A DNA stretch of 34,783 nt from Cellulomonas sp. ACRRI (GTDB lineage Bacteria > Actinomycetota > Actinomycetes > Actinomycetales > Cellulomonadaceae): the NCBI RefSeq assembly GCF_022346185.1, contig NZ_JAKRMS010000031.1, positions 1 through 34,783 on the forward strand, given 5' to 3'. Positions within the stretch are counted from its first letter, which is position 1. Each line of letters opens with the position of its first letter. Below the pieces are notes generated by a model that worked only from the letters and a program-made list of their open reading frames with translations, had not been told where the DNA came from and ran no database searches. Shown one piece after another: positions 8,051-20,183 of the stretch. A program made the translations under genes and the position numbers.

Positions 8051-8745
8051 CAACCCTCCTCGTTCTCGGCGCTGTACTGGCCGGTGAACGCGGCCTCGGT
8101 CACCTGCGCGCTGATGGTGACGCGGTAGAACTGCGCGCCCCCGTCCTCCTGCGCCATCTCGCTGGTCGCCACCCGCACGTCGTCGAGCCCGGGCAGTGCG
8201 TCGAGCCGATCCATCCAGTCGGCGGTGTCGGGCAGCACCGGCATGCGGGCGACGAGCTCGAACCGTCCGACGCTCGTGGGCTGCAGCGGGTCCGCCTGGG
8301 CCGCGCTTCCGTCGACGGGGCTGCTCATGTTCTCCGTGATCTGCTCGATCTTCGCCTCGGCGGGCAGCACCGTGGCGATCGCGACGACATACGACGTCCA
8401 GTCGACGTCCGGCGACATCCCGTAGGCGCGGGCGGTCCGGTTCCTGTCGAGCTCGGCGCGGACGCGGGGGAGCTCCTGGAACTCCGCAGCGTCGCTCTGC
8501 AGCTGCGTCGTGACGTTCTGCTCGTCCACCAGGGCGTCGTCCATCGCGCTCTCCCGCAGCACGGCGAACAGGTAGCCCAGCGCGCACAGGACGAGCACGC
8601 CCACGACGACGAGCGCGAGTACGCGCTTGACCCCGTTGAGACGCCGGGCGTCACGCACTTCGGGCGGCAGCAGGTTGACCTGCGGGGGCTGAGCGACGAA
8701 CGCGGCCGGCGCCTCGCTCTTCGGTCGGCGTTCGGTGATGGTCAC
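8050..8745 (-). CDS. pilN: type IV pilus alignment-complex protein PilN-like
   Basis: A 231-residue bitopic inner-membrane protein. The cytoplasmic N terminus carries VNLLPPE at residues 23-29, equivalent to the INLLP motif that docks in the PilM groove. A membrane helix follows (about 42-62), then a coiled-coil-like stretch and a ferredoxin-like extracytoplasmic region. GTG start at 8745 lies in a GTGA overlap with pilM, and its stop overlaps pilO. Together with pilM and pilO it forms the alignment subcomplex. No PilP/PilQ partners appear here, as expected for a Gram-positive envelope without an outer membrane. Confidence 0.87.
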   Translation of the reverse strand: MTITERRPKSEAPAAFVAQPPQVNLLPPEVRDARRLNGVKRVLALVVVGVLVLCALGYLFAVLRESAMDDALVDEQNVTTQLQSDAAEFQELPRVRAELDRNRTARAYGMSPDVDWTSYVVAIATVLPAEAKIEQITENMSSPVDGSAAQADPLQPTSVGRFELVARMPVLPDTADWMDRLDALPGLDDVRVATSEMAQEDGGAQFYRVTISAQVTEAAFTGQYSAENEEG

Positions 8746-9794
8746 GCGGCGACCCCCTGTGCGAGTCCGACCGAGAGGGCGACCAGCGAGCCGGCACCCT
8801 CCCGCACCTCCGGGCGGACGGACTTGGCGAGGCTCAGACCCCCGACGGCGTTCCCGAAGGCGACAGGCAGCCGGCTCGCGCTCGCGAGGTACTGACCCAG
8901 ACCCGGCAGGTGTGCACCGCCACCGGTCAGGAGCACGCCCTCGATGAGCGCTCCCGGGTGGTTGCCGGCGTAGTAGACGAAGGTGTTCCGCACGGCTTCG
9001 ACCAGGCCGCGGGTGACCGAACCGATCGCCTCCGCCGCGGCCGCGTGCTCCGCGGGCACGCTGAAGCCGACGCCCAGCTCCCGCTTGATCTTCTCGGCCT
9101 CGGCGCTTGAGACCCCAAGGGCTCCGGCTACCGCGCTCGTGACGTTCTGCCCGCCGGCGGGGATGGTCCTCACGAGGCGCGGCACGCCGTGGTCGGCGAC
9201 CACCACGTGCGTCACCGTCGCGCCGATCTCCACGACCGCCACGACGCTGTCCCGGTGCGCCGCCCCCACGAGGGCGCGCTGGAGCGCGAACCCGTTCAGG
9301 TCCACCTGCACGGGCCGAAGCCCGGCTGTCTGCACCGCGCGCACGTTCGCCGTGACGGTGTCGCGCTGAGCAGCCACGAGCATGCCGTGCACCATCCGTC
9401 CCTGCGGTCCGACGCTCTCGCCGTTCGCGTGGAAGTCCAGGAGGGCCTCCTCGATCGGCATCGGCAGCAGCTCCTGCACCTGGAACGGCAGGGACTGCCG
9501 CAGCTGTGCGGGCGGCAGCCACGGCACGTCCAGGTCGCGGACGATCACCCGCTGGTTGCCGACCCCGATCACGACGTCGCGCGTCGTGAACTTCTCCTGC
9601 GACCAGAGCTGCCGCAAGGCCGTGGCCACGGTCTCCGGATCGACGACCTCGCCGTCCCGGACCGCACCGGCGGGCAGAGGCACCGAGCCGAAGCGCTCGA
9701 GCGTCCCGCCCTTTCCGTTCCGTCCCGGCGAGAGCTCGGCTGCCCGCACACCGGTGCTCCCGATGTCGAGGCCGATCACGCGTGAGCTGGCCAC
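8742..9794 (-). CDS. pilM: type IV pilus assembly ATPase-fold protein PilM
   Basis: A 350-residue actin-like (FtsA-fold) cytoplasmic protein. Phosphate-1 motif VIGLDIGSTGVRAAEL is at the N terminus. A PilM-type inserted domain with PWLPPAQLRQSLPFQVQE follows, then phosphate-2 VVEIGATVTHVVVAD and adenosine motif LLTGGGAHLPGL. PilM binds the PilN tail and relays motor action to the pilus base. GTG start at 9794 follows GGAAGGA. A sigma-28-like promoter lies 34-61 bases upstream, making pilM-N-O a separate unit from pilD. Family assignment is secure. Confidence 0.93.
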   Translation of the reverse strand: MASSRVIGLDIGSTGVRAAELSPGRNGKGGTLERFGSVPLPAGAVRDGEVVDPETVATALRQLWSQEKFTTRDVVIGVGNQRVIVRDLDVPWLPPAQLRQSLPFQVQELLPMPIEEALLDFHANGESVGPQGRMVHGMLVAAQRDTVTANVRAVQTAGLRPVQVDLNGFALQRALVGAAHRDSVVAVVEIGATVTHVVVADHGVPRLVRTIPAGGQNVTSAVAGALGVSSAEAEKIKRELGVGFSVPAEHAAAAEAIGSVTRGLVEAVRNTFVYYAGNHPGALIEGVLLTGGGAHLPGLGQYLASASRLPVAFGNAVGGLSLAKSVRPEVREGAGSLVALSVGLAQGVAA

Positions 9795-9827: not shown

Positions 9828-9855
9828 CTATCGGCGGGTTGAGTCGCCACTTGAG
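9828..9855 (-). promoter_or_regulatory. sigma-28 (FliA)-like promoter upstream of pilM
   Basis: Minus strand: CTCAAGT (9849-9855), 13 bases, GCCGATAG (9828-9835). Aligned as TCAAGTGG-N11-GCCGATAG it matches the enterobacterial FliA architecture TAAAGTTT-N11-GCCGATAA in spacing and at most positions. Predicted start near 9820, about 25 bases before pilM. It is the best match of the four such sites in the locus. Confidence 0.65.
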
Positions 9856-9878
9856 GGGGTGCTGCTCGGCGCACCCGG

Positions 9879-10667
9879 TCAGCCGAGCAGCCCGATGTAC
9901 CAGGAGGCGAGCGGCGCGCCCACGACGAGTCCGACCGCCGCGCCCAGCAGCATCCAGGGTCCGAACGGGATGCCAGACCCGCGCGCGGCACGTCCGGTCG
10001 CGAGCAGCCCGATCGAGTAGATGCCGCCGAGCAGGAACGCCTAGAACCACCCGACGACCAGGGCCGGCCAGCCCGCCCAACCCAGGAACAGCCCGATCAG
10101 ACCCGCGAGCTTGACGTCTCCCAGACCCATCCCGCGGGGGTAGATCAGGAGGAGGACGAAGTAGACGAGGAACATCGCGGCGCCGCCCAGGAGCGCCCTG
10201 ACGAGCGCGGGCCAGTCGGAGGTGCCCCCCGGGGACCAGCTGGCGAGCACGAGCAGGACGGCGGCTGCGGGGTAGGCGGGGAGAACGATCGCGTCGGGCA
10301 ACCGGTGCACATCGAGATCGATGAGTGTCAGCGCGACGGCGACGGACGCCAGGAGCAGGTACGCCGGGGTCGACCAGTCGGGCCCGGACCACCACACCGC
10401 CAGGGCGAACAGCATGGCGGTACCCGCCTCGACGAGCGGGTAGCGACGCGAGATCGGCTCGCCGCAGTCTCGACACCGCCCGCGGAGCAGGACCCAGGAC
10501 AGCACCGGCACGTTGTCCCGGGGACGGACGGGTCGGCCGCACGCCGGGCACGCGCTCGGCGGCGAGACCACAGAGTCTCCACGTGGGACCCGCCAGACGA
10601 CGACGTTGAGGAACGACCCGATCGCGAGCCCGAGCAGCGCACCGGCCGTGATCGCGAACCACGTCAC
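9879..10667 (-). pseudogene. pilD: prepilin peptidase PilD with in-frame amber codon
   Basis: A membrane aspartic peptidase that cleaves and N-methylates prepilins. GTG at 10667 lies in a GTGA overlap with the PilX-like gene. Present are the GSFLNVVVWR segment, a zinc-type four-cysteine domain (C40, C43, C65, C68), and both catalytic aspartates: D117 in IDLDVHRLPD and D184 in GLGDVK. Codon 209 is TAG (10041-10043). The same frame then runs 53 codons to a TGA at 9879-9881 and encodes FLLGGIYS and IPFGPWMLLGA, the normal PilD ending with one or two membrane helices. The translated stub is 208 residues; full length would be 262. One base change would restore it. It may be a nonsense allele, readthrough or a sequence error. 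The stub could retain activity, since both aspartates precede the stop. Confidence 0.88.
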
Positions 10668-12280
10668 GGCGTCCGGACCTCCCGCTTGTACACCACGTCG
10701 ACCCGGTAGCCCGAGGAGGCGGTCGGGTTGGTCGTCGGGAAGGTCACGCCGGGGATGCCGATCGGCACGTACCGCATCGTCATGCTGTTGCGGAGCTCGA
10801 CGTTGCCCCCGTACAGCTGTCCGTAGAACGTCATCGTGTTGTTGGTCTCGATGGTGCACGGCGTGTACACGAAGATCGTCACCGGGGAGATCGCGAGGCT
10901 GCCCGAGTCGAACTTGATGCTCCCGGACTTCTTGCCCGCAACCGTCTTGCCGCACTCCGCGACGCCGTTCGAGGCGCTCGGCGAGTCGGGATCCGGAACG
11001 ATGATCCAGACCTGGTGCGGCTGCCCGTCGGCCGAGGTGATCTTGAAGTCACCGGTCCCGTAGAACTCGTTCGCGAAGATCACGAGGTCGGCGCGGAGCC
11101 TGATGTTCACGCCGCCCTGCATCGTCGTCTTCGCGCAGTGCCGGGTGTCGAAGAGGGTCGGCACCGCCGGGCCGAGGAGCGCCCCGTTGATGCTGTAGTC
11201 CGCGCCCGCGATAGTGCACTGGTCCTTCGCGGGGTTGCGGGCGTCGGACCAGGTCGGGGCGTTGTTCGCCACGGCGTTCTCGTTCACCCACGTGCGATAC
11301 GCCAGCTGCCGGTCGCCGGCGGTGACGAAGCCGGTCCAGTCGGACGGGTCGTACACCACCTCGGGCAGGCCCACGGGCACGTACTGCGGGATCGCCGCGC
11401 TGCCAACGCCAGTCTTGAGCGTGCCGCCGACGACAGGACCGCCACCCCACGTACTCATCGAGCCTGCGATGATCAGGTCACGGCCGTACTTGGAGCCGCC
11501 GGCGATCGTCGCGTTCGCCGACACGTACGTGTCCTGGCCCACCGTCGCGAGGCCCGCGACCTGCGCCTGGTGGACCGAGAGCTGCTTCGAGCTCCAGAGG
11601 TTCTGGGTGACGCGGCACCCGTTCGAGATGTCCGTCGTGCCGTTCACGACGATCAGGTTGCCGTCGATCTTGACGTTCGAGTTGCAGTTCACGTTGCCGG
11701 TGTCGACCCACACATCCACCGGTGTGTCGGGCAGCGACGTCTCGAGGGTGAAGCCGTTCGTCGTCATGATCTGGTTCGCGGCGAAGATGGCGGCGCCGCG
11801 GCCCGGGACGGACATCGGTGTCAGCTCGACCTTCGACTGCACCGTGCGGGTGCTGCCGCCGCCCAGGTCGGCGTCACCCGACGTGGTCGCCGTCGCGGTG
11901 ATGACCGCCTGGGTCGCGTCACCCGACACGACCCCGGCACTGCAACTGAGCGCAGTGCCCGCGTCGTCGAAGTACGCGACGGTCGCCGTCACCGAGGTCC
12001 GGGACGGCGCGGAGCCTGAGACGGCGGCGCCGGACGCGGGCCACGAGCACAGCGTGCTCTGCTCGAGCTCGGCGTACACCGCGTCGACCGCACCCTCCGC
12101 CGAGTGAACCTCGGTGGTGAGTGCGCGGTCGTCGCCCGACTGGTCGGATACCTGGATCGCGTTGGCGAGCACGACCAGCCCCAGGGCGAGGCACACCATC
12201 GAGATCGCGACGGCCGCGACCAGCGCGCTGCCGCGCTCAGGGTGGTCGTGGTGGAGCCTGCGGCGCACGGCAGCGAACAT
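10664..12280 (-). CDS. large PilX-like minor pilus protein
   Basis: A 538-residue exported protein; ATG at 12280 follows GGAGGACT. The N terminus (ERGSALVAAVAISMVCLALG) is prepilin-like. It has S rather than F after the glycine and lacks the glutamate five residues in, as in PilX/GspK-type minor subunits. The long C-terminal region is beta-rich, with repeating short NG/GT/GN turns (LIVVNGTTDISNG, SANATIAGGSKYGRD) that look like a beta-helix. Nine cysteines are present: one in the helix and eight outside. It follows the PilW-like gene by 50 bases and overlaps pilD. A role in priming or capping the pilus is inferred from position; it is much longer than proteobacterial PilX (about 200). Confidence 0.75.
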   Translation of the reverse strand: MFAAVRRRLHHDHPERGSALVAAVAISMVCLALGLVVLANAIQVSDQSGDDRALTTEVHSAEGAVDAVYAELEQSTLCSWPASGAAVSGSAPSRTSVTATVAYFDDAGTALSCSAGVVSGDATQAVITATATTSGDADLGGGSTRTVQSKVELTPMSVPGRGAAIFAANQIMTTNGFTLETSLPDTPVDVWVDTGNVNCNSNVKIDGNLIVVNGTTDISNGCRVTQNLWSSKQLSVHQAQVAGLATVGQDTYVSANATIAGGSKYGRDLIIAGSMSTWGGGPVVGGTLKTGVGSAAIPQYVPVGLPEVVYDPSDWTGFVTAGDRQLAYRTWVNENAVANNAPTWSDARNPAKDQCTIAGADYSINGALLGPAVPTLFDTRHCAKTTMQGGVNIRLRADLVIFANEFYGTGDFKITSADGQPHQVWIIVPDPDSPSASNGVAECGKTVAGKKSGSIKFDSGSLAISPVTIFVYTPCTIETNNTMTFYGQLYGGNVELRNSMTMRYVPIGIPGVTFPTTNPTASSGYRVDVVYKREVRTP

Positions 12281-12330
12281 GAGTCCTCCGGGACGTTCGG
12301 TGGAGCGGGCTCGAGGGCGGGTCGGGAAGG

Positions 12331-13032
12331 TCACGGCGCCGGCACCGCCGCGCACGCGTCGGACGGGTAGCCGTAGACGGTGTTGCGTCCAGTGAGCACC
12401 GACGTCACCGTCGCCGGCTTGGACTGCTCTCGCTGCTCGGGGTCCTTGATGCGGAGCGTCACCCTGACCGTCTGCGCGGTGGACGACGCCTCCGCCGGTG
12501 ACGTGCTGTCGACGTAGAACGGCGGCCAGGTGCTCGGGTCGCCGGCCACGGGCGTCGCCGAGCTCGGCCGCACGATGTCCCGCGCCACGACGCTCCAGTC
12601 GTCCACGCCGCCCGTCACCTGCCAGCTCGGCTGCCACGACCGGTACTGCAGCTCGCCGTACGACGAGCCGGCCGGATACACCACCCGCCACTGCACACAC
12701 TGGAAGACGCCGTCGGTCTGGGTGTAGACCCGCAGGGAGTAGTAGGGCGCGACCCCCGAGCTCGAGATCGTCTCGGCAGCCGGGTCCGAGATCACGTTGC
12801 CCGAACGCACCTGCCGGTCGATCTGTCGCAGTCCGAGCTGAGCCTGGTCGACCGCCCGCGTCCGCGCGAGGTTGTCGCGGGTCTGGTACGAGACCGTGAC
12901 CAGGATCGACGTCACGATCGCGATGAGGCCCAGGAAGATGGTCATGGCCACCAGCAGCTCAGGCAACGTCCAACCGCGCTCGGCGCCGTCGTGCCGCGCT
13001 TGTCGCAGCCGTCGGCGCAGGACCTCACGCAA
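12331..13032 (-). CDS. PilW-like minor prepilin
   Basis: A 233-residue prepilin. The class III signal is RG|WTLPELLVAMTIFLG: cleavage after G20, mature residue 1 is W, and mature residue 5 is E. A single N-terminal helix and a beta-rich head follow, with two cysteines (FQCVQW and DACAAV) that could form a disulfide. The only workable start is TTG at 13032, preceded by AAGGCGG and overlapping the upstream stop by eight bases; no ATG or GTG in frame gives a sensible leader. It probably joins the pilus-tip minor subunits encoded on either side. Confidence 0.8.
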   Translation of the reverse strand: MREVLRRRLRQARHDGAERGWTLPELLVAMTIFLGLIAIVTSILVTVSYQTRDNLARTRAVDQAQLGLRQIDRQVRSGNVISDPAAETISSSGVAPYYSLRVYTQTDGVFQCVQWRVVYPAGSSYGELQYRSWQPSWQVTGGVDDWSVVARDIVRPSSATPVAGDPSTWPPFYVDSTSPAEASSTAQTVRVTLRIKDPEQREQSKPATVTSVLTGRNTVYGYPSDACAAVPAP

Positions 13033-14800
13033 GGGGTGCCGCCTTGTACGCCGCGCTCGCCCGCGCGGACCCGAGGTCGGTCGCGACGGACAACGCGTAC
13101 TGCGTCGCACCCTGGGCCACGACGTAGGTCGCCGTGACGACGATCGTGCCGGAGTCGGAGTCCAGCGTGCAGCCGTCACCGGTGCAGCCGGTGGGATCGG
13201 CCGCCACGGGGAGGTCGCCACCCTTGGTGACGGTGACCGTGGCCGTGGCCGTGACGGTCCGTGTCCCGTCCGTCCACGTGACGGCCGGCACCGTCAGCGT
13301 CTGGTCGGTGCTGCGCGACACCGACAGGCTGGAGTAGCCGGTGCCGTTCCAGTAGGCGATCGTCGCGCTGCGCGACGCGGCTGCTCCAGTCGACGGCTGC
13401 CCCGCACCGCGCTGGACGAGCACCGAGTCGCTGTAGCCGGTGACCTTGACGAGGCCGGCGGTCGCGCCGGTCCACGGGCCAGCGCCGATGATCGTCGTAC
13501 CCACCGTGTGGGATGCGCCTCCTGAGCCGCACCCGGCACCGCTGAGGCTCGTGCAGCCGACACCTGCTGTCCCGGCGGCGCTGCTGAACCGGGCCGAGAA
13601 CGCCTTCGACGCGCCGCCAGCCGCGATGGACGCTGCCACGAAGTCGGTGGATCCTGCGCGGATCACGACGGACGAGGGCGTGCCGCCCGTCAAGTCGCCG
13701 CGGGCGCAAGGCTGACCGGCAGGGATCCCCGTCCGGCAGGAGCTGGTCGTCGAGGCCCCCGCGACACCAGCTGCGCCCGACCCCGCGGTCAGTGTCAGGC
13801 TCACGTCCGTGCCTGCGACGACCACTGCGGAGCTCGACCCGGAACCCACGACGTCCGGCGGCGACGACGGCGCTGCTCCTGCCGATCCCACATCGTTGGA
13901 GGCCGCGTTCGCGAGCTTCGACCCGCCGCTCGCCGTCTCGGGAAGGTCGGGGTCGACACGTGTCACCGCGGACCGGGCGTGCTGGACCGCGGCGTCGACG
14001 GAGCTGGACTGCTGCGCGTTCATCGTGGCGCCAACCGAGCCGCCGGACAGCGTCGCGACGGAGTAGTCGGTCCCGGGCAGGAGCGATGCCGGCGCGGGCT
14101 GCCCTGCTCCCGGTGCCACGGCGGAGACGACCACGCTCGGACCGGTGACACCACCGGACCCGGAGAAGAGCGCCTGGCACGCACCCAGGAAGGGCTGGTT
14201 CGACGCGTCACCGCAGCCACCGGCGGGCGCGTACGCCTGCGAGCGCAGCATCACGTACGCATTGCGGGCGTTGCTCTTCGCGGGCCAGGTCGTGATGACG
14301 GTAAGCGTGAGGACGCCCGTGGGGGCGGACGGCGCACTCGTGACGTACACACGCGTGGTGAACGTGGTTCCGGTGCCGCCGGGGTCGCTCGAGATGGTCT
14401 TGTTGGTCCCCGCGGCCCCGGAGAGCGGCGGCATCGAGGTCACCTGGGTGGAGCTGGTCACGAGCGGCTCGTTCAGAGGCCCGCCGACGGCCGGCTGAAG
14501 CCGCCCGCTGGACACGTTCGCGTCACCACCGGACGCGGCGACGAAGTTCGTGTGCATGCCCTTGCTGAGCGTCAGCCACGGCAGCGCGCGGAGCTGCTCC
14601 ATGGTCTGGTTCGCGACCGCCGCCGCCTGCGTCCGCTGACGCGCCTGGGCCCCCGTGACGAGCGCCGAGGTCTGGGCCGCCATCAGCCCGAGCAGGACGA
14701 GCGAGATCACGAGCATCGCGACGACCAGCTCGATGAGGGTGAAGCCCTCGTCGTCGCCACGGCGACCGGCGAGCCGACTCAGCACCTGGTGACGCGGCAC
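13025..14800 (-). CDS. very large PilV-like minor prepilin, possible tip adhesin
   Basis: A 591-residue protein starting with GTG at 14800 behind AGGAGGT. The signal EG|FTLIELVVAMLVISLVLLG gives a 19-residue leader and mature E5. A PilV-like helix is followed by an exceptionally long Ser/Thr/Gly/Ala-rich, beta-strand-type region of about 530 residues. Eight cysteines fall in four close pairs spaced 11, 9, 7 and 4 residues apart, suggesting small disulfide loops in the exported part. Usual PilV is 150-200 residues. It is the first gene after the pilA hairpin and overlaps the PilW-like gene. An adhesive tip subunit is a reasonable inference, not a demonstrated function. Confidence 0.78.
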   Translation of the reverse strand: MPRHQVLSRLAGRRGDDEGFTLIELVVAMLVISLVLLGLMAAQTSALVTGAQARQRTQAAAVANQTMEQLRALPWLTLSKGMHTNFVAASGGDANVSSGRLQPAVGGPLNEPLVTSSTQVTSMPPLSGAAGTNKTISSDPGGTGTTFTTRVYVTSAPSAPTGVLTLTVITTWPAKSNARNAYVMLRSQAYAPAGGCGDASNQPFLGACQALFSGSGGVTGPSVVVSAVAPGAGQPAPASLLPGTDYSVATLSGGSVGATMNAQQSSSVDAAVQHARSAVTRVDPDLPETASGGSKLANAASNDVGSAGAAPSSPPDVVGSGSSSAVVVAGTDVSLTLTAGSGAAGVAGASTTSSCRTGIPAGQPCARGDLTGGTPSSVVIRAGSTDFVAASIAAGGASKAFSARFSSAAGTAGVGCTSLSGAGCGSGGASHTVGTTIIGAGPWTGATAGLVKVTGYSDSVLVQRGAGQPSTGAAASRSATIAYWNGTGYSSLSVSRSTDQTLTVPAVTWTDGTRTVTATATVTVTKGGDLPVAADPTGCTGDGCTLDSDSGTIVVTATYVVAQGATQYALSVATDLGSARASAAYKAAPLA

Positions 14801-14861
14801 GGAGCACCTCCTGGGGGACGCGGCGGTTGTCGAGGGGTTCGATGCGCCCCGGGGGGACGCG

Positions 14862-14899
14862 CCACGGCAGCGGCACCCGAGCGGGTGCCGCTGCCGCTG
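14862..14899 (-). terminator. hairpin immediately downstream of pilA
   Basis: A perfect 14-bp stem (14865-14878 with 14883-14896) has a GAGC loop and three more base pairs past a bulge. It starts about 10 bases after the pilA stop. Lying between the major pilin and the minor prepilins, it probably terminates most transcripts or protects the pilA 3' end, so that pilin is made in excess. Confidence 0.6.
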
Positions 14900-14909
14900 G
14901 TTCATGCGA

Positions 14910-15347
14910 TCAGCAGGCGGTCTTCGAGAGACCGGTCTCCGAGTAGTACCAGGTGGCAGCACCGGCGACGCTGGCGTTCGGGTTGACGCTGACGCAGAAG
15001 TCGTCCCGGCTGGTGGCCGAGCCCGTGGCGGTGTTCTTGCCCGAGAGCTTGCCGGCCGAGACGGGCGCGCCACCGGCGCCGGCCTCCGCGAGCGACCAGT
15101 CGGCGCTGCCGGCGGCGTTGGTCAGCGTCAGGCCGGCCGTGCCGTCGACGTAGTACGCGAGGATCTCCTTGCCGATGACCGTGACGTCCGACTTGGCGGC
15201 CGTCTCGGCCGCCTTCTTCCGCTGGTTCAGGTACACCGGCACGGCCACTGCGGCGAGGATGCCGATGATGATCATGACGACGAGGAGCTCGACGAGGGTG
15301 AAGCCCTTGTCCTTCTCCTCGATGGACTTGCGAATGCGAGCGATCAC
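14910..15347 (-). CDS. pilA: major type IV pilin PilA
   Basis: A 145-residue prepilin. The leader ends DKG|FTLVELLVVMIIIGILAAVAVPVY: cleavage after G15, mature F1 and E5, and a canonical hydrophobic helix. The mature protein is about 130 residues and has two cysteines, one in DDFCVSV and one at the very C terminus, framing a D-loop as in many type IVa pilins. GTG start at 15347 is preceded by GAGGGAG. It is the only gene here with major-pilin size. Its own sigma-28-like promoter upstream and a strong hairpin downstream fit high, independent expression. It needs PilD for processing, and the pilD gene here is interrupted. Confidence 0.92.
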   Translation of the reverse strand: MIARIRKSIEEKDKGFTLVELLVVMIIIGILAAVAVPVYLNQRKKAAETAAKSDVTVIGKEILAYYVDGTAGLTLTNAAGSADWSLAEAGAGGAPVSAGKLSGKNTATGSATSRDDFCVSVNPNASVAGAATWYYSETGLSKTAC

Positions 15348-15433
15348 GCTGCTCTCCCTCAGGTCGTCGGCATGGGTAGCCGCAGGACTTTCGAATGGAT
15401 TCCGGCGGGGCCGGTTCAGGTCGAACAGCCGGT

Positions 15434-15462
15434 ACATCGTCCGGCGCGGGCTGCAACTTGAG
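15434..15462 (-). promoter_or_regulatory. sigma-28 (FliA)-like promoter upstream of pilA
   Basis: Minus strand: CTCAAGT (15456-15462), 14 bases, GACGATGT (15434-15441). The -35 extended as TCAAGTTG matches TAAAGTTT at six of eight positions. The -10 matches GCCGAT at five of six positions. Predicted start near 15426, giving a leader of about 80 bases. Confidence 0.55.
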
Positions 15463-15473
15463 TCGGGCGGAGA

Positions 15474-15509
15474 ACTTCGCGGCAATTCACCCGTGCGGGT
15501 GAGCGAAGT
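15474..15509 (-). terminator. hairpin between pilC and pilA
   Basis: ACTTCGC (15474-15480) pairs with GCGAAGT (15503-15509), and inner TCACCC pairs with GGGTGA around a GTGC loop. The two stems are separated by six unpaired bases on one side. It begins 12 bases after the pilC stop and ends just before the pilA -35, so it probably closes the pilT-pilC transcript. Confidence 0.5.
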
Positions 15510-15521
15510 GTCCGATTCGCC

Positions 15522-16748
15522 CTAGTTGATCAGATTGAAGACGCCGAAGATCGGCATGTAGAGGGCCACGACCATGGCGCCGATGATCGATCCGATGAAG
15601 ACGATCATCAGGGGCTCGATCAGCGACGTGAGCTGCTCCGTGGTCGCCTCGACCTCCTGGTCGTAGAAGTCGGCGACCTTGTCGAGCATCACGTCCAGGG
15701 CGCCGGTGTCCTCGCCGACGGCGATCATCTGCACCACCATCGGCGGGAAGACCGGGTGCAGGGCCAGGGGCCCTGCCAGCGACTCTCCGCGCCGCACCGA
15801 CTCTTGGACGTCGCGCGCTGCCCGCTCGATCACCACGTTGCCGCTCGTGGAGCCGACGATGTCCAGCGCCTGGAGAATCGGCACGCCCGCGTGGATCATC
15901 GTGCCGAAGTTCCGGGTGAAGCGCGCGACCGCCAGCTTCTTGGCAATGGTGCCGAAGACTGGCGCCTTCAGCTTCAGCGGATCGACTCGCTCCCGCACAC
16001 CGGGATCATTCTTGTGCTTCGACCACCAATAGATCCCGATACCCAGCAGCGCCGTGAGCGGGATGATCGACCATTTCATTGCGGTAGACAGCCACACGAG
16101 GATCCGGGTCGGCAACGGCAGGGTCCCGCCGAGCGACTCGAACATCCCCGAGAAGACGGGCACGATGAACAGGAGCATGCCGACCATCGCGAGGATCGCG
16201 ATGACGAAGACGATGACGGGGTAGGTCATCGCGGACTTCACCTTGCCGCGCAGCTTGACGTCCGCCTCGAAGTTCTCGGCGACCGACACCAGTACCTCGT
16301 CGAGGAATCCGCCGACCTCGCCGGCGCGCACCATGTTGATCATCAGCGGCGGGAACACCTGGGGGTGCTTCCCCAGCGCCACCGAGAACGCCGTGCCGGT
16401 CTCGACATCCGTCCGCACGGCCTGGATGACCTTGGTGAGTGCCTTGTTCTCGGTCTGCTCGGAGAGGATCGACAGTGCCCGGATCAGGGCAAGCCCCGCG
16501 GAGACCATCGTCGCCAGCTGCCGCGCCATGATCGCCAGATCCTTGAGCGCGATCCGGTCGCTCAAGCCCGGGATCGTGATCTCACGCTGCAGGCCCGTGG
16601 TCTGCACCTCGGACACCGAGAGGGCAGCCAGGCCCATCGTCCGCAGGCGGTTCGCGACCGCCGCCTGGTTGGGCGCCTCGATCCGGCCCTTGACGACCTT
16701 GCCGGACTTGTCGCGGACCGCGTACTCGAACGTCTTGCTCTCGGGCAT
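15522..16748 (-). CDS. pilC: type IV pilus platform protein PilC
   Basis: A 408-residue polytopic inner-membrane protein of the GspF/PilC family, on which the PilB and PilT motors act. The N-terminal FEYAVRDKSGKVVKGRIEA segment is followed by two repeated GspF cytoplasmic domains (ARQLATMVSAGLALIRAL, and later FTRNFGTMIHAGVPILQALD) and three membrane helices near residues 170-195, 215-235 and 380-402. ATG at 16748 overlaps the pilT stop by one base (TGATG), so it is translated with pilT. It ends in TAG, the only intact gene in the window to do so. Confidence 0.95.
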   Translation of the reverse strand: MPESKTFEYAVRDKSGKVVKGRIEAPNQAAVANRLRTMGLAALSVSEVQTTGLQREITIPGLSDRIALKDLAIMARQLATMVSAGLALIRALSILSEQTENKALTKVIQAVRTDVETGTAFSVALGKHPQVFPPLMINMVRAGEVGGFLDEVLVSVAENFEADVKLRGKVKSAMTYPVIVFVIAILAMVGMLLFIVPVFSGMFESLGGTLPLPTRILVWLSTAMKWSIIPLTALLGIGIYWWSKHKNDPGVRERVDPLKLKAPVFGTIAKKLAVARFTRNFGTMIHAGVPILQALDIVGSTSGNVVIERAARDVQESVRRGESLAGPLALHPVFPPMVVQMIAVGEDTGALDVMLDKVADFYDQEVEATTEQLTSLIEPLMIVFIGSIIGAMVVALYMPIFGVFNLIN

Positions 16749-18319
16749 CAGTGTGCGCCTCCCTGCGTCGCGGCGGCGTACGGCGAGCCCCCGGGCGGGA
16801 CCTGGTCGTACTGAGCCGCCTGGCCGGCGACCGCGCCCGGCGCCATTGCCGCCCCGGAGGAGAAGCGACCGGTGAGCCGGTTGAAGTCCTCGGCGTGGTG
16901 CGACTTCTCCAGGCCGGTCTCGTAGCTGATCCGGCCCGTCTTGACGAGCTCGGCCAGGTGCTGGTCCAGCGTGTGCATGCCCTGCTGCGCCCCGGCCTGC
17001 ATCGCGGAGTAGATCTGGTGGGTCTTGCCCTCGCGAATCAAGTTGCGCACGGCTGCCGTCGCAACCATGACCTCGGTGGCGACCACGCGGCCCGGCGCGT
17101 CGGAGCGCTTGCACAGCGTCTGGCAGACCACGCCCTGGATCGCGCCCGCCAGCTGCGTGCGCACCTGCGCCTGCTGGTGGGACGGGAAGACGTCGATCAT
17201 GCGGTCGATCGTCTGGGCGGCGTCCTGCGTGTGCAGGGTCGCGAAGACGAGGTGGCCGGTCTCGGCTGCGGTCAGCGCGACCGAGATCGTCTCCAGGTCG
17301 CGGAGCTCGCCCACCAGGATGATGTCGGGGTCCTGACGCAGCACGTGCTTCAGCGCGTTCGCGAACGAGTGGGTGTCCTCCCCCACCTCGCGCTGGTTGA
17401 CGAGCGCCTTCTTGTGCCGGTGCAGGAACTCGATCGGGTCCTCGACCGTCATGATGTGGTCGGCTCGCGTGCGGTTCGCCAGATCCACGATCGCGGCGAG
17501 CGTCGTCGACTTGCCCGACCCGGTCGGACCGGTCACGAGGACCATCCCGCGCGGCAGGCCCGCGAAGTTCGCCACGACGGGCGGCACGCCCAGCTGCTCC
17601 AGCGGTTTGATCTCGTACGGGATCAGGCGGAATGCGGCCCCGATCGACTCGCGCTGCTGGTAGAGGTTCAGGCGGAACCGCGCGAGACCCCGCACCGAGT
17701 ACGACAGGTCGAGCTCGAGGTTCGCCTCGAACTTCTCGCGCTGCTTCTGGGTGAGCACGGCGTACAGCGCCCGGCGCAGCCCCTCGCCCTCGAGGGGCGC
17801 GAACCCCTCCAGAGGGCGCAGCTCGCCGGCGAGGCGCACGGTGGGCGGGGCGCCGGTCGTGAGGTGCAGGTCGGACGCGCCGGCCTGGACCATCGCGGCG
17901 AGGGCCTCGTCCAGCTCGAGATCGCCCTCCTGGCGCTGCAGCCCCATGCCGGGGCGCGCCGAGCCGGCGCGCATCGCAGCACGGGTCCCCGCGGGAGCGG
18001 CTGCGCGCCCGGCCTGCGGGGCACCCGGCGGCGGACCGGCAGGGGCCGGAGCACCCGGAACCGTCCCGGCGGGACCCGGTGCGCCTGCCGGGTACGCCTG
18101 CGGCAGCCCGACCGACGGGGCCGCCGGTGCGCCGGCGTACGGCTGCGCCGCGGTCACGGGCTGGGCGGGCGGGGCGAGGACGGGCGCGAGCGCCGGCGGC
18201 GCCTGCGTCGGCAGCCCCCCGCCGGACGGCGCGCCGGCGACGGGCGGCGCGAGCGGCGGGATGTACGGCGGCAGTCCCGCCGCGGGCGTCGGTCCAGCAC
18301 CGGGGTAGGGCTCGGTCAC
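16748..18319 (-). CDS. pilT: pilus retraction ATPase PilT
   Basis: A 523-residue hexameric ATPase that depolymerises pili and powers twitching. The C-terminal 370 residues are standard PilT: Walker A GPTGSGKS (from residue 264), VEDPIEFLH, a Walker B region with ILVGELRDLETI, the His box ETGHLVFATLHT, and the PilT-specific NLIREGKTHQI. The first 150 or so residues are a Pro/Ala/Gly-rich, probably disordered extension not found in classical PilT (about 345 residues). GTG at 18319 behind GAGAGGTGG starts it. The extension is in frame and has the same base composition, so I keep it. A sigma-28-like promoter precedes it and pilC is coupled behind it. Confidence 0.94.
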   Translation of the reverse strand: MTEPYPGAGPTPAAGLPPYIPPLAPPVAGAPSGGGLPTQAPPALAPVLAPPAQPVTAAQPYAGAPAAPSVGLPQAYPAGAPGPAGTVPGAPAPAGPPPGAPQAGRAAAPAGTRAAMRAGSARPGMGLQRQEGDLELDEALAAMVQAGASDLHLTTGAPPTVRLAGELRPLEGFAPLEGEGLRRALYAVLTQKQREKFEANLELDLSYSVRGLARFRLNLYQQRESIGAAFRLIPYEIKPLEQLGVPPVVANFAGLPRGMVLVTGPTGSGKSTTLAAIVDLANRTRADHIMTVEDPIEFLHRHKKALVNQREVGEDTHSFANALKHVLRQDPDIILVGELRDLETISVALTAAETGHLVFATLHTQDAAQTIDRMIDVFPSHQQAQVRTQLAGAIQGVVCQTLCKRSDAPGRVVATEVMVATAAVRNLIREGKTHQIYSAMQAGAQQGMHTLDQHLAELVKTGRISYETGLEKSHHAEDFNRLTGRFSSGAAMAPGAVAGQAAQYDQVPPGGSPYAAATQGGAH

Positions 18320-18373
18320 CGTGCCACCTCTCCGATCGTGTCGCGGCGCGCCTCGGCGCCGCCCTGCCCGGTC

Positions 18374-18402
18374 CCATCGGCCGAGGTGAGCCCGTTCTTG
18401 AG
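18374..18402 (-). promoter_or_regulatory. sigma-28 (FliA)-like promoter upstream of pilT-pilC
   Basis: Minus strand: CTCAAGA (18396-18402), 14 bases, GCCGATGG (18374-18381). It sits in the 106-base gap after the pilB stop. Predicted start near 18366, about 47 bases before the pilT GTG. It is a close match to the pilM and pilA sites, which argues against chance. Confidence 0.6.
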
Positions 18403-18425
18403 CGATCGGCCCGCGGACCACCCGG

Positions 18426-20105
18426 TCACGCGACGACCCGCAGGATCTCCTCCACCGACGTCTGCCCCAGCACGACCTTCTGCCACCCGTCGTCGCGGAG
18501 CGTGATCATCCCCTGCGACCGCGCGGTCGCCCCGATCTCGGCCGCCGAGGCGCGCGCGACGGCGAGGCGCTCGATGTCCTCGGTCACCCGCATCACCTCG
18601 TGCAGGGCGACGCGCCCGCGGTACCCGGTGCGGGAGCAGGCGACGCAGCCGACCGGGCGGAACAGCTCGGGCAGCGGCTCGCCCGGCACCCAGGGGAACC
18701 GGGCGCCGATGAGCTCGGTCTCGGTCGGGGTGTAGGGCTCGCAGCACTTGGCGCACAGCCGCCGGGCGAGCCGCTGGGCGACCACGGCGTCCAGCGCGGA
18801 GCCGACGAGGAACGGCTCGATGCCCATCTCGGTGAGCCGGGTGACCGCTGAGGGGGCGTCGTTGGTGTGCAGGGTCGAGAGCACGAGGTGGCCGGTGAGC
18901 GCCGCCTCGATGGCGATCTGCGCGGTCTCGTGGTCGCGGATCTCGCCGAGGAGGACGACGTCGGGGTCGGACCGCAGGATGGAGCGCAGCGCGCCGGCGA
19001 AGGTGAGGCCGGCCTTGGGGTTGACCTGGACCTGGTTGATGCCGGCGAGCCGGTACTCGACCGGGTCCTCGACGGTGATGACGTTGATCTCCGGCTTGGA
19101 GACGGCGTTCAGGGTCGCGTAGAGGGTGGTCGACTTGCCGGAGCCGGTGGGGCCGGTGACCAGGATCATGCCGTAGGGCTTGGTGTACGCCTCGCGGTAC
19201 GTCTCGTAGTTGTGGTCGAGGAACGCGAGGTCCCGCAGGTCGAGCGAGGCGGTGGAGTTGTCGAGGATCCGCATGACGATCTTCTCGCCCCACACGGTCG
19301 GCAGCGTGGCGACGCGGAGGTCGATCTTGCGGCCGTTGTGCGTGACCGACATGCGGCCGTCCTGGGGCTTGCGGCGCTCGGCGATGTCGATGTCCGACAT
19401 GATCTTGACGCGCGAGATGACACCGCCCTGGATCTGCTTGGGCGAGCGCTGCATCTCGTGCAGCACGCCGTCGATCCGGTACCGCACGCGCAGGTCGTGC
19501 TCGGTGGGCTCGATGTGGATGTCGGAGGCCCGGTCCGAGATCGCCTGGGTCACCAGCAGGTTGACGTAGCGGACGATCGGGGCGTCGTCCTCGACGGCGT
19601 TGCCGATGTTCGACAGGTCGACCTCGGCCTGCTGGGACTGGTGCTCCTCCTCGAACGCGGAGGACAGGTCCTCCATCTCGCCGTCGGCGCGGCAGAACCG
19701 CTCGATCGCGCGGCTGAGGTTCTCGTAGGTCGCGACGATCGGCAGGACCGCCATGCCCGAGACGGTGCGGACGTCGTCGACCGCGACGACGTTGCCGGGG
19801 TCGGCGGTGGCGAGCACGAGCGCCCCGTCCTGGAACCCGACGGGCAGCACCGTGTACCGCCGGCAGAGCGCGGCCGGCACCATCGACACCGCGGCCCGGT
19901 CGACCTGGTACTCGTCCAGGTCGACGAACGCCATCCCGACCTGGCGGGCCAGTGCGGCGACGAGCTGCCCCTCGGTGAGGACGCCGATCTCGACCAGCGT
20001 GCGGCCGAGGGACTGCCCCCGGGCCATCTGCTCGTCCAGCGCCGCCATGAGCTGCGCCTCGCTGACCAGGCCCTCGTCCAGCAGGATCTCGCCGAGCTGC
20101 TTCAC
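18426..20105 (-). CDS. pilB: pilus extension ATPase PilB with N-terminal MshEN-like domain
   Basis: A 559-residue assembly motor. Residues 1-55 contain two successive LGxxL...G(L/V)...L..AL..Q repeats, the layout of the MshEN domain that binds cyclic di-GMP in MshE; the leading arginine of that motif is K or Q here. The ATPase core has a DIHIEPTEHDLRVRYRIDG segment, Walker A GPTGSGKS (318-325), VITVEDPVEYR, a Walker B region with VVLLGEIRDHETA, the His box LTGHLVLSTLHTND, and a C-terminal zinc-type tetracysteine (CAKC, CVAC). GTG at 20105 follows GAAAGGG. It has its own promoter-like site and is the first gene of the pilus locus after aroE. Confidence 0.95.
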   Translation of the reverse strand: MKQLGEILLDEGLVSEAQLMAALDEQMARGQSLGRTLVEIGVLTEGQLVAALARQVGMAFVDLDEYQVDRAAVSMVPAALCRRYTVLPVGFQDGALVLATADPGNVVAVDDVRTVSGMAVLPIVATYENLSRAIERFCRADGEMEDLSSAFEEEHQSQQAEVDLSNIGNAVEDDAPIVRYVNLLVTQAISDRASDIHIEPTEHDLRVRYRIDGVLHEMQRSPKQIQGGVISRVKIMSDIDIAERRKPQDGRMSVTHNGRKIDLRVATLPTVWGEKIVMRILDNSTASLDLRDLAFLDHNYETYREAYTKPYGMILVTGPTGSGKSTTLYATLNAVSKPEINVITVEDPVEYRLAGINQVQVNPKAGLTFAGALRSILRSDPDVVLLGEIRDHETAQIAIEAALTGHLVLSTLHTNDAPSAVTRLTEMGIEPFLVGSALDAVVAQRLARRLCAKCCEPYTPTETELIGARFPWVPGEPLPELFRPVGCVACSRTGYRGRVALHEVMRVTEDIERLAVARASAAEIGATARSQGMITLRDDGWQKVVLGQTSVEEILRVVA

Positions 20106-20154
20106 CCCGTTGCCCTTTCGTCCGGGGCAGGCAGGTGCACCGGCCCCGTAGGGC

Positions 20155-20183
20155 CCATCGGCAGGTCGGCGCGGGGAGATGAG
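20155..20183 (-). promoter_or_regulatory. weaker sigma-28-like promoter upstream of pilB
   Basis: Minus strand: CTCATCT (20177-20183), 14 bases, GCCGATGG (20155-20162), the same -10 and spacing as the pilT site. The -35 matches CTCAAGT at five of seven positions. Predicted start about 42 bases before pilB. The 134-base gap after aroE (20106-20239) holds no other feature I can support. Confidence 0.45.

What the first reader, a model, noticed from the sequence alone, without database searches (positions are those of the whole stretch)
9828..20183. Four sigma-28 (FliA/WhiG-type) promoter-like sites partition the pilus locus
Upstream of pilM (9828-9855), pilA (15434-15462), pilT (18374-18402) and, more weakly, pilB (20155-20183), the minus strand carries a CTCAAGT-like -35, 13 or 14 bases, and a GCCGATGG-like -10. 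The pilM site aligns as TCAAGTGG-N11-GCCGATAG with the established FliA consensus TAAAGTTT-N11-GCCGATAA. All four lie outside the annotated genes and 25-80 bases before a pil start. The inference is that a motility sigma factor co-controls type IV pili, perhaps with flagella, in this actinobacterium.
Basis: partly seen in the sequence, partly recalled or inferred. Interest (0 to 1): 0.85.

Follow-up and report, generated by a model that had tools for sequence, protein, structure and literature searches.

The report
WhiG-type promoters on pilus operons
Four predicted gene groups for type IV pili in this Cellulomonas-like bacterium each carry a flagellar-type promoter-like sequence, conserved in dozens of relatives including ones without flagellin genes, so the pili are likely switched on by WhiG, a cousin of the swimming regulator, rather than by the swimming regulator itself.

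Summary
A CTCA-N16/17-GCCGAT element lies between genes on the minus strand, 35-88 bases before the pilB, pilT, pilA and pilM starts. With at most 1 mismatch in 10 it recurs at 242 of 276 homologous pil upstream regions from the window plus 80 related loci, against 9 of 276 on the opposite strand, 1 of 68 upstream of aroE and 51 of 1493 random windows. Spacers are nearly unconserved. The genome encodes a WhiG orthologue beside rpsB and a divergent FliA-type sigma factor beside flagellin genes. The same element precedes flagellar, chemotaxis and c-di-GMP genes. The 13 of 49 relatives that lack flagellin lack the FliA-type factor; all 13 keep the WhiG type, and 12 keep at least one pil site. Pil sites mostly use a 17-base spacer and flagellar sites a 16-base spacer. 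My best reading is that WhiG drives the pilus operons and the FliA-type factor drives flagella. RsiG and FlgM were not found in this genome. Sigma-28-family control of type IV pili is published for Rubrobacter and Actinoplanes, so this is a new variant. No transcription start or sigma dependence was measured.

The parts
20157..20183 (-). pilB promoter-like site: CTCA (20183-20180), N17, GCCGAT (20162-20157)
   Evidence: sequence; at most 1 mismatch at 63 of 73 homologous positions
18426..20105 (-). pilB, extension ATPase with MshEN domain
   Evidence: T2SSE 465 bits, MshEN 72 bits
18376..18402 (-). pilT promoter-like site: CTCAAG...GCCGAT, N17 after CTCA
   Evidence: sequence; 63 of 72
16748..18319 (-). 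pilT, retraction ATPase
   Evidence: T2SSE 157 bits
15522..16748 (-). pilC, in the same predicted unit as pilT
   Evidence: T2SSF 224 bits for 15525-16742; start chosen by eye
15436..15462 (-). pilA promoter-like site: CTCAAG...GACGAT, N17 (weakest -10)
   Evidence: sequence; 56 of 69
14910..15347 (-). pilA, major pilin
   Evidence: N_methyl domain 37.8 bits
9879..10667 (-). pilD, prepilin peptidase, with an in-frame TAG at 10041-10043
   Evidence: A24_N_bact and Peptidase_A24 domains in the piece 10044-10823; stop; start chosen by eye
9830..9855 (-). pilM promoter-like site: CTCAAG...GCCGAT, N16 in this genome, N17 in most relatives
   Evidence: sequence; 60 of 62
8742..9794 (-). pilM, first gene of the predicted pilM-N-O unit
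   Evidence: PilM_2 153 bits; pilN and pilO by position and sequence only

Best explanation
The four sites are conserved sigma-28-family promoter-like sequences that likely let RNA polymerase carrying the WhiG-type sigma factor transcribe the type IV pilus genes as four predicted units (pilB; pilT-pilC; pilA to pilD; pilM-N-O). Shown: the elements, their conservation, a WhiG orthologue in the genome, and the presence of both in relatives without flagellin. The divergent FliA-type factor beside the flagellins is then predicted to read the flagellar and chemotaxis promoters, which mostly have a 16-base instead of a 17-base spacer. WhiG's restraint is unknown, because neither RsiG nor FlgM was found here.
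For: Conservation at 242/276 homologous regions against 9/276 on the opposite strand, with information mainly in CTCA(AG) and NCCGAT and spacer identity 33-40%. WhiG-type sigma over the family cut-off in 47 of 49 relatives. The window genome's own is 311.7 bits to the solved chain 6pfj_A, and rpsB lies beside it here and in 25 of 30 fetched loci. All 13 flagellin-less genomes lack the FliA type and have the WhiG type; pil sites are present at 35/46 of their regions, or 29/31 without Demequina. Spacers among sites with at most 1 mismatch: flagellin N16 22/23; pil N17 207/243. A 78 kb flagellar region of one relative has 12 N16 and 0 N17 exact sites; the 80 pil loci have 125 N17 and 21 N16. Genome-wide N16 counts are lower without flagellin (23.1 against 14.2, p 1.4e-4), N17 counts are not (15.0 against 15.5).
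Against: No transcript or binding data. G010 (Cellulomonas sp. B6) has good pil sites but no WhiG-type match was listed (draft genome, gap not excluded). Demequina, with WhiG only, has weak pil sites and N16 or N15 at pilT, and the window's own pilM site is N16, so the spacer rule is a tendency. The -35 differs from the published TAAA. Relatives are not independent samples. The N16 difference per megabase is weaker (p 0.019), and no frame-matched background was counted in the relatives.
Confidence: 0.72

Rival explanations
1. The flagellar FliA-type sigma factor, alone or together with WhiG, drives both flagella and pili.
For: The same two hexamers precede flagellar and pilus genes. 33 of 243 pil sites, and the window's pilM, have the 16-base spacer. 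G010 has a FliA type but no listed WhiG type, yet keeps good pil sites.
Against: 13 of 49 relatives lack the FliA type and flagellin; pil sites are present at 29 of 31 regions in the 8 of them that are not Demequina.
Confidence: 0.18
2. The elements are the binding site of another regulator, or the promoter of an unrelated sigma factor, that only resembles the sigma-28 consensus.
For: The -35 is CTCA(AG), not TAAA; pilB mostly lacks the AG but has a conserved T before GCCGAT.
Against: The -10 GCCGAT, the near-fixed 16-17 base spacing, the place upstream of start codons, the little-conserved spacer, and enrichment for motility genes: about 10 of 33 (7 of 30 without the pil sites) against 0 of 29 control sites.
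Confidence: 0.07
3. The four sites are chance resemblances in G+C-rich intergenic DNA.
For: Counting in the one genome gives only a modest excess over frame-matched spacers.
Against: 242 of 276 homologous regions against 51 of 1493 random windows.
Confidence: 0.01

Closest known systems
WhiG-RsiG-c-di-GMP switch on type IV pili in Rubrobacter radiotolerans (Schumacher, Gallagher et al. 2021, PMC8325347; abstract, passages and section 14 read)
   Same: WhiG-family sigma, GCCGAT -10, several promoters inside a pil cluster (three there, with mapped starts), c-di-GMP genes in the predicted regulon.
   Different: No RsiG found in the window's genome; -35 CTCA(AG); a second FliA-type factor and flagellar genes coexist; spacer differs between pilus and flagellar sites.
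Type IV pili and flagella of Actinoplanes missouriensis zoospores, directed by FliA/WhiG-like sigma factors (Kimura 2019 is not held; Jang 2016 and Hashiguchi 2020 not opened; seen only as described in passages of PMC8325347 and PMC13293333)
   Same: Flagella and pili in one actinobacterium under sigma-28-family control; WhiG present without RsiG, as PMC8325347 states.
   Different: Sporangium and zoospore development there. I could not compare promoter spacing or which sigma serves the pili.
FliA-FlgM of E. coli and SigD-FlgM of B. subtilis
   Same: Promoter class, with -10 GCCGAT.
   Different: FlgM found in 0 of 50 genomes. Chater and Chandra 2013 (PMC4255298, passages read) already reported no FlgM in WhiG-bearing actinobacteria.

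Membership tests
sigma-28 (FliA/WhiG) promoter | -10 GCCGAT(AA) | tested here: met
   GCCGAT at pilM, pilT, pilB; GACGAT at pilA. CCGAT conserved, its first base G less so at pilA and pilM. The trailing AA is not kept.
sigma-28 (FliA/WhiG) promoter | -35 TAAA | tested here: not met
   CTCA(AG), i.e. TCAA at pilM/pilT/pilA and TCAT at pilB. Under the Rubrobacter rule (at most 2 mismatches to TAAA and GCCGATAA) only pilM would pass. I therefore call them promoter-like sequences of this general class with a lineage-specific -35.
sigma-28 (FliA/WhiG) promoter | transcription start at the right distance and sigma dependence | not testable with these tools
   needs 5'-end mapping and mutants
WhiG orthologue (C260 gene) | closest to WhiG, conserved place beside rpsB | tested here: met
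   311.7 bits to 6pfj_A, listed as 'RNA polymerase sigma factor' (that it is Streptomyces WhiG is recalled), against 162.3 bits to 6pmi_F, listed as FliA; rpsB nearby here and in 25 of 30 loci. No tree was built.
WhiG-RsiG-c-di-GMP switch | an RsiG protein | tested here: not met
   PF22802: no match in the window's genome. 31 of 50 genomes have some match at E 0.001 or better, but only 3 (L119, L123, L126) a strong one with two stretches in one frame (best 61.9-74.4 bits); 2 more just reach the cut-off (27.6 and 27 bits), inconclusive; 26 are below it
FliA-FlgM system | FlgM anti-sigma factor | tested here: not met
   0 of 50 genomes; controls E. coli, B. subtilis and T. maritima match
type IV pilus cluster | PilB, PilT, PilC, N-methyl pilin, PilD and PilM together | tested here: met
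   Pfam matches

The most novel reading that the evidence does not exclude
Two sigma-28-family factors divide swimming from surface life in these bacteria by one base of promoter spacing. The FliA-type factor reads 16-base spacers on flagella and chemotaxis genes. WhiG reads 17-base spacers on type IV pili, a LuxR-type regulator, a second PilT and a camelysin-like surface protein, without RsiG or FlgM, and it persists without flagella as a dedicated surface-appendage sigma factor.
Probability: 0.45. Interest if true: 0.76.

Novelty: new variant of a known kind. Interest (0 to 1): 0.62.

Why it matters
[quoted passage not shown] This gives a testable answer: WhiG would run surface pili in Cellulomonas and relatives, with the flagellar factor separate. 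It would extend the Rubrobacter link to genomes without a detectable RsiG, so WhiG would be restrained some other way or not at all. It also suggests how two sigma factors reading nearly the same hexamers could be kept apart by one base of spacing.

Tried and rejected
Counting the motif in one genome alone was not convincing: the tool's backward-pattern control is biased (it contains TAG), and coding-frame periodicity lifts N16, so I used spacer- and frame-matched controls and then conservation.

A strict N17 = WhiG, N16 = FliA rule was considered and rejected as absolute: Demequina pilT and the window's own pilM are N16, and 33 of 243 pil sites are N16.

Control by RsiG/c-di-GMP was tested and not supported in this genome. 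FlgM was tested and not found.

The broader genome-wide set is noisy. In the window's genome the N17 places also include two genes with weak metallopeptidase matches, an Excalibur protein and a NIT-domain sensor, and many N16 places look unrelated to motility.

The motility count of about 10 of 33 test genes (3 MCP, 2 T2SSE, PilM, FliM, GGDEF; EAL; flagellar rod protein at 20.4 bits, just under its cut-off) against 0 of 29 control genes rests on the first 25 Pfam families shown in each. Three of the 10 are the pil sites of the finding itself; without them it is 7 of 30 against 0 of 29 (Fisher p 0.011). The controls come from 40 stretches around the earlier part of the 94 control places; 44 places were found in them and 29 distinct genes were scanned.

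Not run: structure prediction, protein database search, a sigma-factor tree.

Full report
What is there. The window lies on contig C210 of a 4.49 Mb, 285-contig assembly. The 80 pilT relatives kept (of 313) from a scan of named genomes are Cellulomonas, Cellulosimicrobium, Actinotalea, Sanguibacter, Demequina, Kineosporia, Kineococcus and others; PilB is 99% identical to that of Cellulomonas hominis strain CS1 and of a strain named Cellulosimicrobium cellulans. The cluster runs on the minus strand between an aroE-like gene and an aroC-like gene (both named by sequence only): pilB, pilT, pilC, pilA, further pilin-like genes, pilD, pilM and two genes taken as pilN and pilO.

The four sites are real. 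Written with CTCA as the -35 core: pilB CTCA-N17-GCCGAT, pilT CTCAAG with N17 and GCCGAT, pilA CTCAAG with N17 and GACGAT, pilM CTCAAG with N16 and GCCGAT. They lie between genes, with 51, 56, 88 and 35 bases to the start codon.

Chance. In the one genome, CTCA-N15..18-GCCGAT has 34 matches (N15 0, N16 22, N17 8, N18 4). Spacers of 19-34 give 94, with strong three-base periodicity; frame-matched spacers give 6-13 for the N16 frame and 2-5 for the N17 frame. The excess is real but modest. Of the 34 places, 33 had a usable downstream reading frame. The 33 genes include 3 MCPs, PilB, PilT, PilM, FliM and a GGDEF protein, an EAL-HDOD protein, a flagellar rod protein just under the Pfam cut-off and a glycosyltransferase in the flagellar cluster. 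None of these kinds was among the families shown for 29 genes after control places (25 of 34 families shown). About 10 of 33 against 0 of 29 gives a Fisher p of 0.001; without the three pil sites it is 7 of 30, p 0.011.

Conservation settles it. I located pilB, pilT, pilA, pilM and, as a control, aroE in the window and the 80 loci by tblastn and scored the upstream DNA. At most 1 mismatch in 10 occurs at 63/73, 63/72, 56/69 and 60/62; on the opposite strand at 1/73, 2/72, 4/69 and 2/62; upstream of aroE at 1/68. In all that is 242/276; 79 of 81 loci have at least one site, 72 at least two; random 200-base windows of the same loci score 51/1493. Aligned on the motif (N17 sites only), information sits mainly in CTCA(AG) and NCCGAT; the spacer carries little and its pairwise identity is 33-40%, the exceptions being a T just before the -10 at pilB and the base just after the -10 at pilM. 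Two sub-types appear among sites with at most 1 mismatch: CTCAAG with a looser -10 at pilT (60/63 with AG), pilA (49/56) and pilM (56/60), and CTCA mostly without AG (6/64 with it) but with a T before the -10 (59/64) at pilB.

Which sigma factor. The genome has two sigma-28-family genes; a third match (113.6 bits) recurs at that score in most relatives and looks like the primary sigma factor, which I did not test. One (C260) scores 270.8 bits, over the TIGR02479 cut-off, is 311.7 bits to the solved chain 6pfj_A (that this is Streptomyces WhiG is recalled) and lies near rpsB, tsf, pyrH and frr (named by sequence); rpsB is also seen in 25 of 30 fetched relatives, several of the rest lying at contig ends. 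The other (C275, 168.5 bits) lies between flagellin-family genes. Of 49 relatives searched (50 asked, one not held), 47 have a WhiG-type match over the cut-off, one (G006) a fragment at a contig end, and one (G010) none listed. A flagellin-family match is present in 36 of 49; 35 of these have a full FliA-type match and one (G038) a fragment; none of the 13 without flagellin has one listed. All 13 have the WhiG type. Their pil regions have the site at 35/46, or 29/31 without the five Demequina; 12 of the 13 have at least one; in flagellated relatives it is 115/127. So the pilus sites do not need the flagellar sigma factor for their maintenance, and WhiG is the best candidate reader. This is inference from genomes; no sigma dependence was measured.

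Spacing. Upstream of flagellin, 23 of 29 scored genes (28 of 30 fetched loci with a recognised start, plus the window genome's own) have a site with at most 1 mismatch, and 22 of these 23 have N16; pil sites are N17 at pilB 51/64, pilT 57/63, pilA 46/56 and pilM 53/60. In 78 kb around one relative's flagellar genes there are 12 exact N16 and 0 N17 sites; in the 80 pil loci 125 N17 and 21 N16, with 34 at N13, unexplained. Genome-wide, N16 counts are 23.1 in the 37 flagellated genomes (the window's included) and 14.2 in the 13 others (p 1.4e-4; per megabase p 0.019); N17 counts are 15.0 and 15.5. I counted no frame-matched background in these relatives. Against a strict rule: the window's pilM and Demequina pilT are N16. 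The Fisher test ignores relatedness and I do not lean on it.

Beyond pili. From the partial list of N17 places in relatives I chose and fetched 12 with CTCAAG. Seven precede what looks like one LuxR-type regulator, two of them in flagellin-less genomes; one precedes a second PilT-like gene; one a camelysin-family protein; three precede other genes (one of the seven, the PilT-like and the camelysin protein checked with Pfam). The window's genome has a related site (CTCA-N17-TCCGAT, with CTCAAG) before a camelysin-like gene on C118 that is 42% identical to the relative's. This hints at a surface-life regulon but is a small, chosen sample.

Restraint. RsiG (PF22802) has no match in the window's genome and a clear one in only 3 of 50 (L119 Kineosporia, L123 and L126 Kineococcus); 28 others have weak partial matches, two of them just at the cut-off. 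FlgM is found in 0 of 50. What holds WhiG back, if anything, is open.

Known work. PMC8325347 (abstract, passages and section 14 read) found predicted WhiG promoters with mapped starts in the pil cluster of Rubrobacter radiotolerans and states that Actinoplanes pili and flagella are directed by WhiG-like sigma factors. PMC4255298 (passages read) notes that whiG keeps some local synteny, that no FlgM is encoded, and that WhiG's role in motile simple actinobacteria was unstudied. Searches for WhiG with type IV pil (11 papers), WhiG with Cellulomonas (2 papers) and WhiG with FliA, flagell, promoter and spac (12 of 270 listed) showed, in their listings, no paper on WhiG and pili in this family or on the spacer difference; only open-licence papers are searched.

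Noticed in passing
window 10041-10043, minus strand: pilD carries an in-frame TAG about 50 codons before the end of its frame (which runs on to 9879); the aligned DNA of the relative L049 has no stop there. Real lesion or assembly error is unknown.
   Followed up: partly
window 18426-20105: PilB carries an MshEN domain, a family known (recalled) to bind c-di-GMP, so c-di-GMP could act on the extension motor although no RsiG was found.
   Followed up: no
L208, L209, L210, L214, L215, L216, L217: What looks like one LuxR-type regulator has a CTCAAG-type N17 site just upstream in seven relatives, two of them without flagellin; a candidate conserved WhiG target.
   Followed up: partly
L224 (G000:C118) and L212 (G003:C23): Camelysin-family (PF12389) surface-protein-like genes have a 17-base-spacer site upstream in both genomes; the proteins are 42% identical.
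   Followed up: partly
80 pil loci, L048-L127: CTCA-N13-GCCGAT occurs 34 times across the loci, more than other off-target spacers; perhaps a conserved coding position.
   Followed up: no
L001/L009, G000:C260: whiG lies near rpsB-tsf-pyrH-frr, and no exact CTCA-N15..18-GCCGAT site was listed on that contig, so no sign of self-control by this motif.
   Followed up: partly
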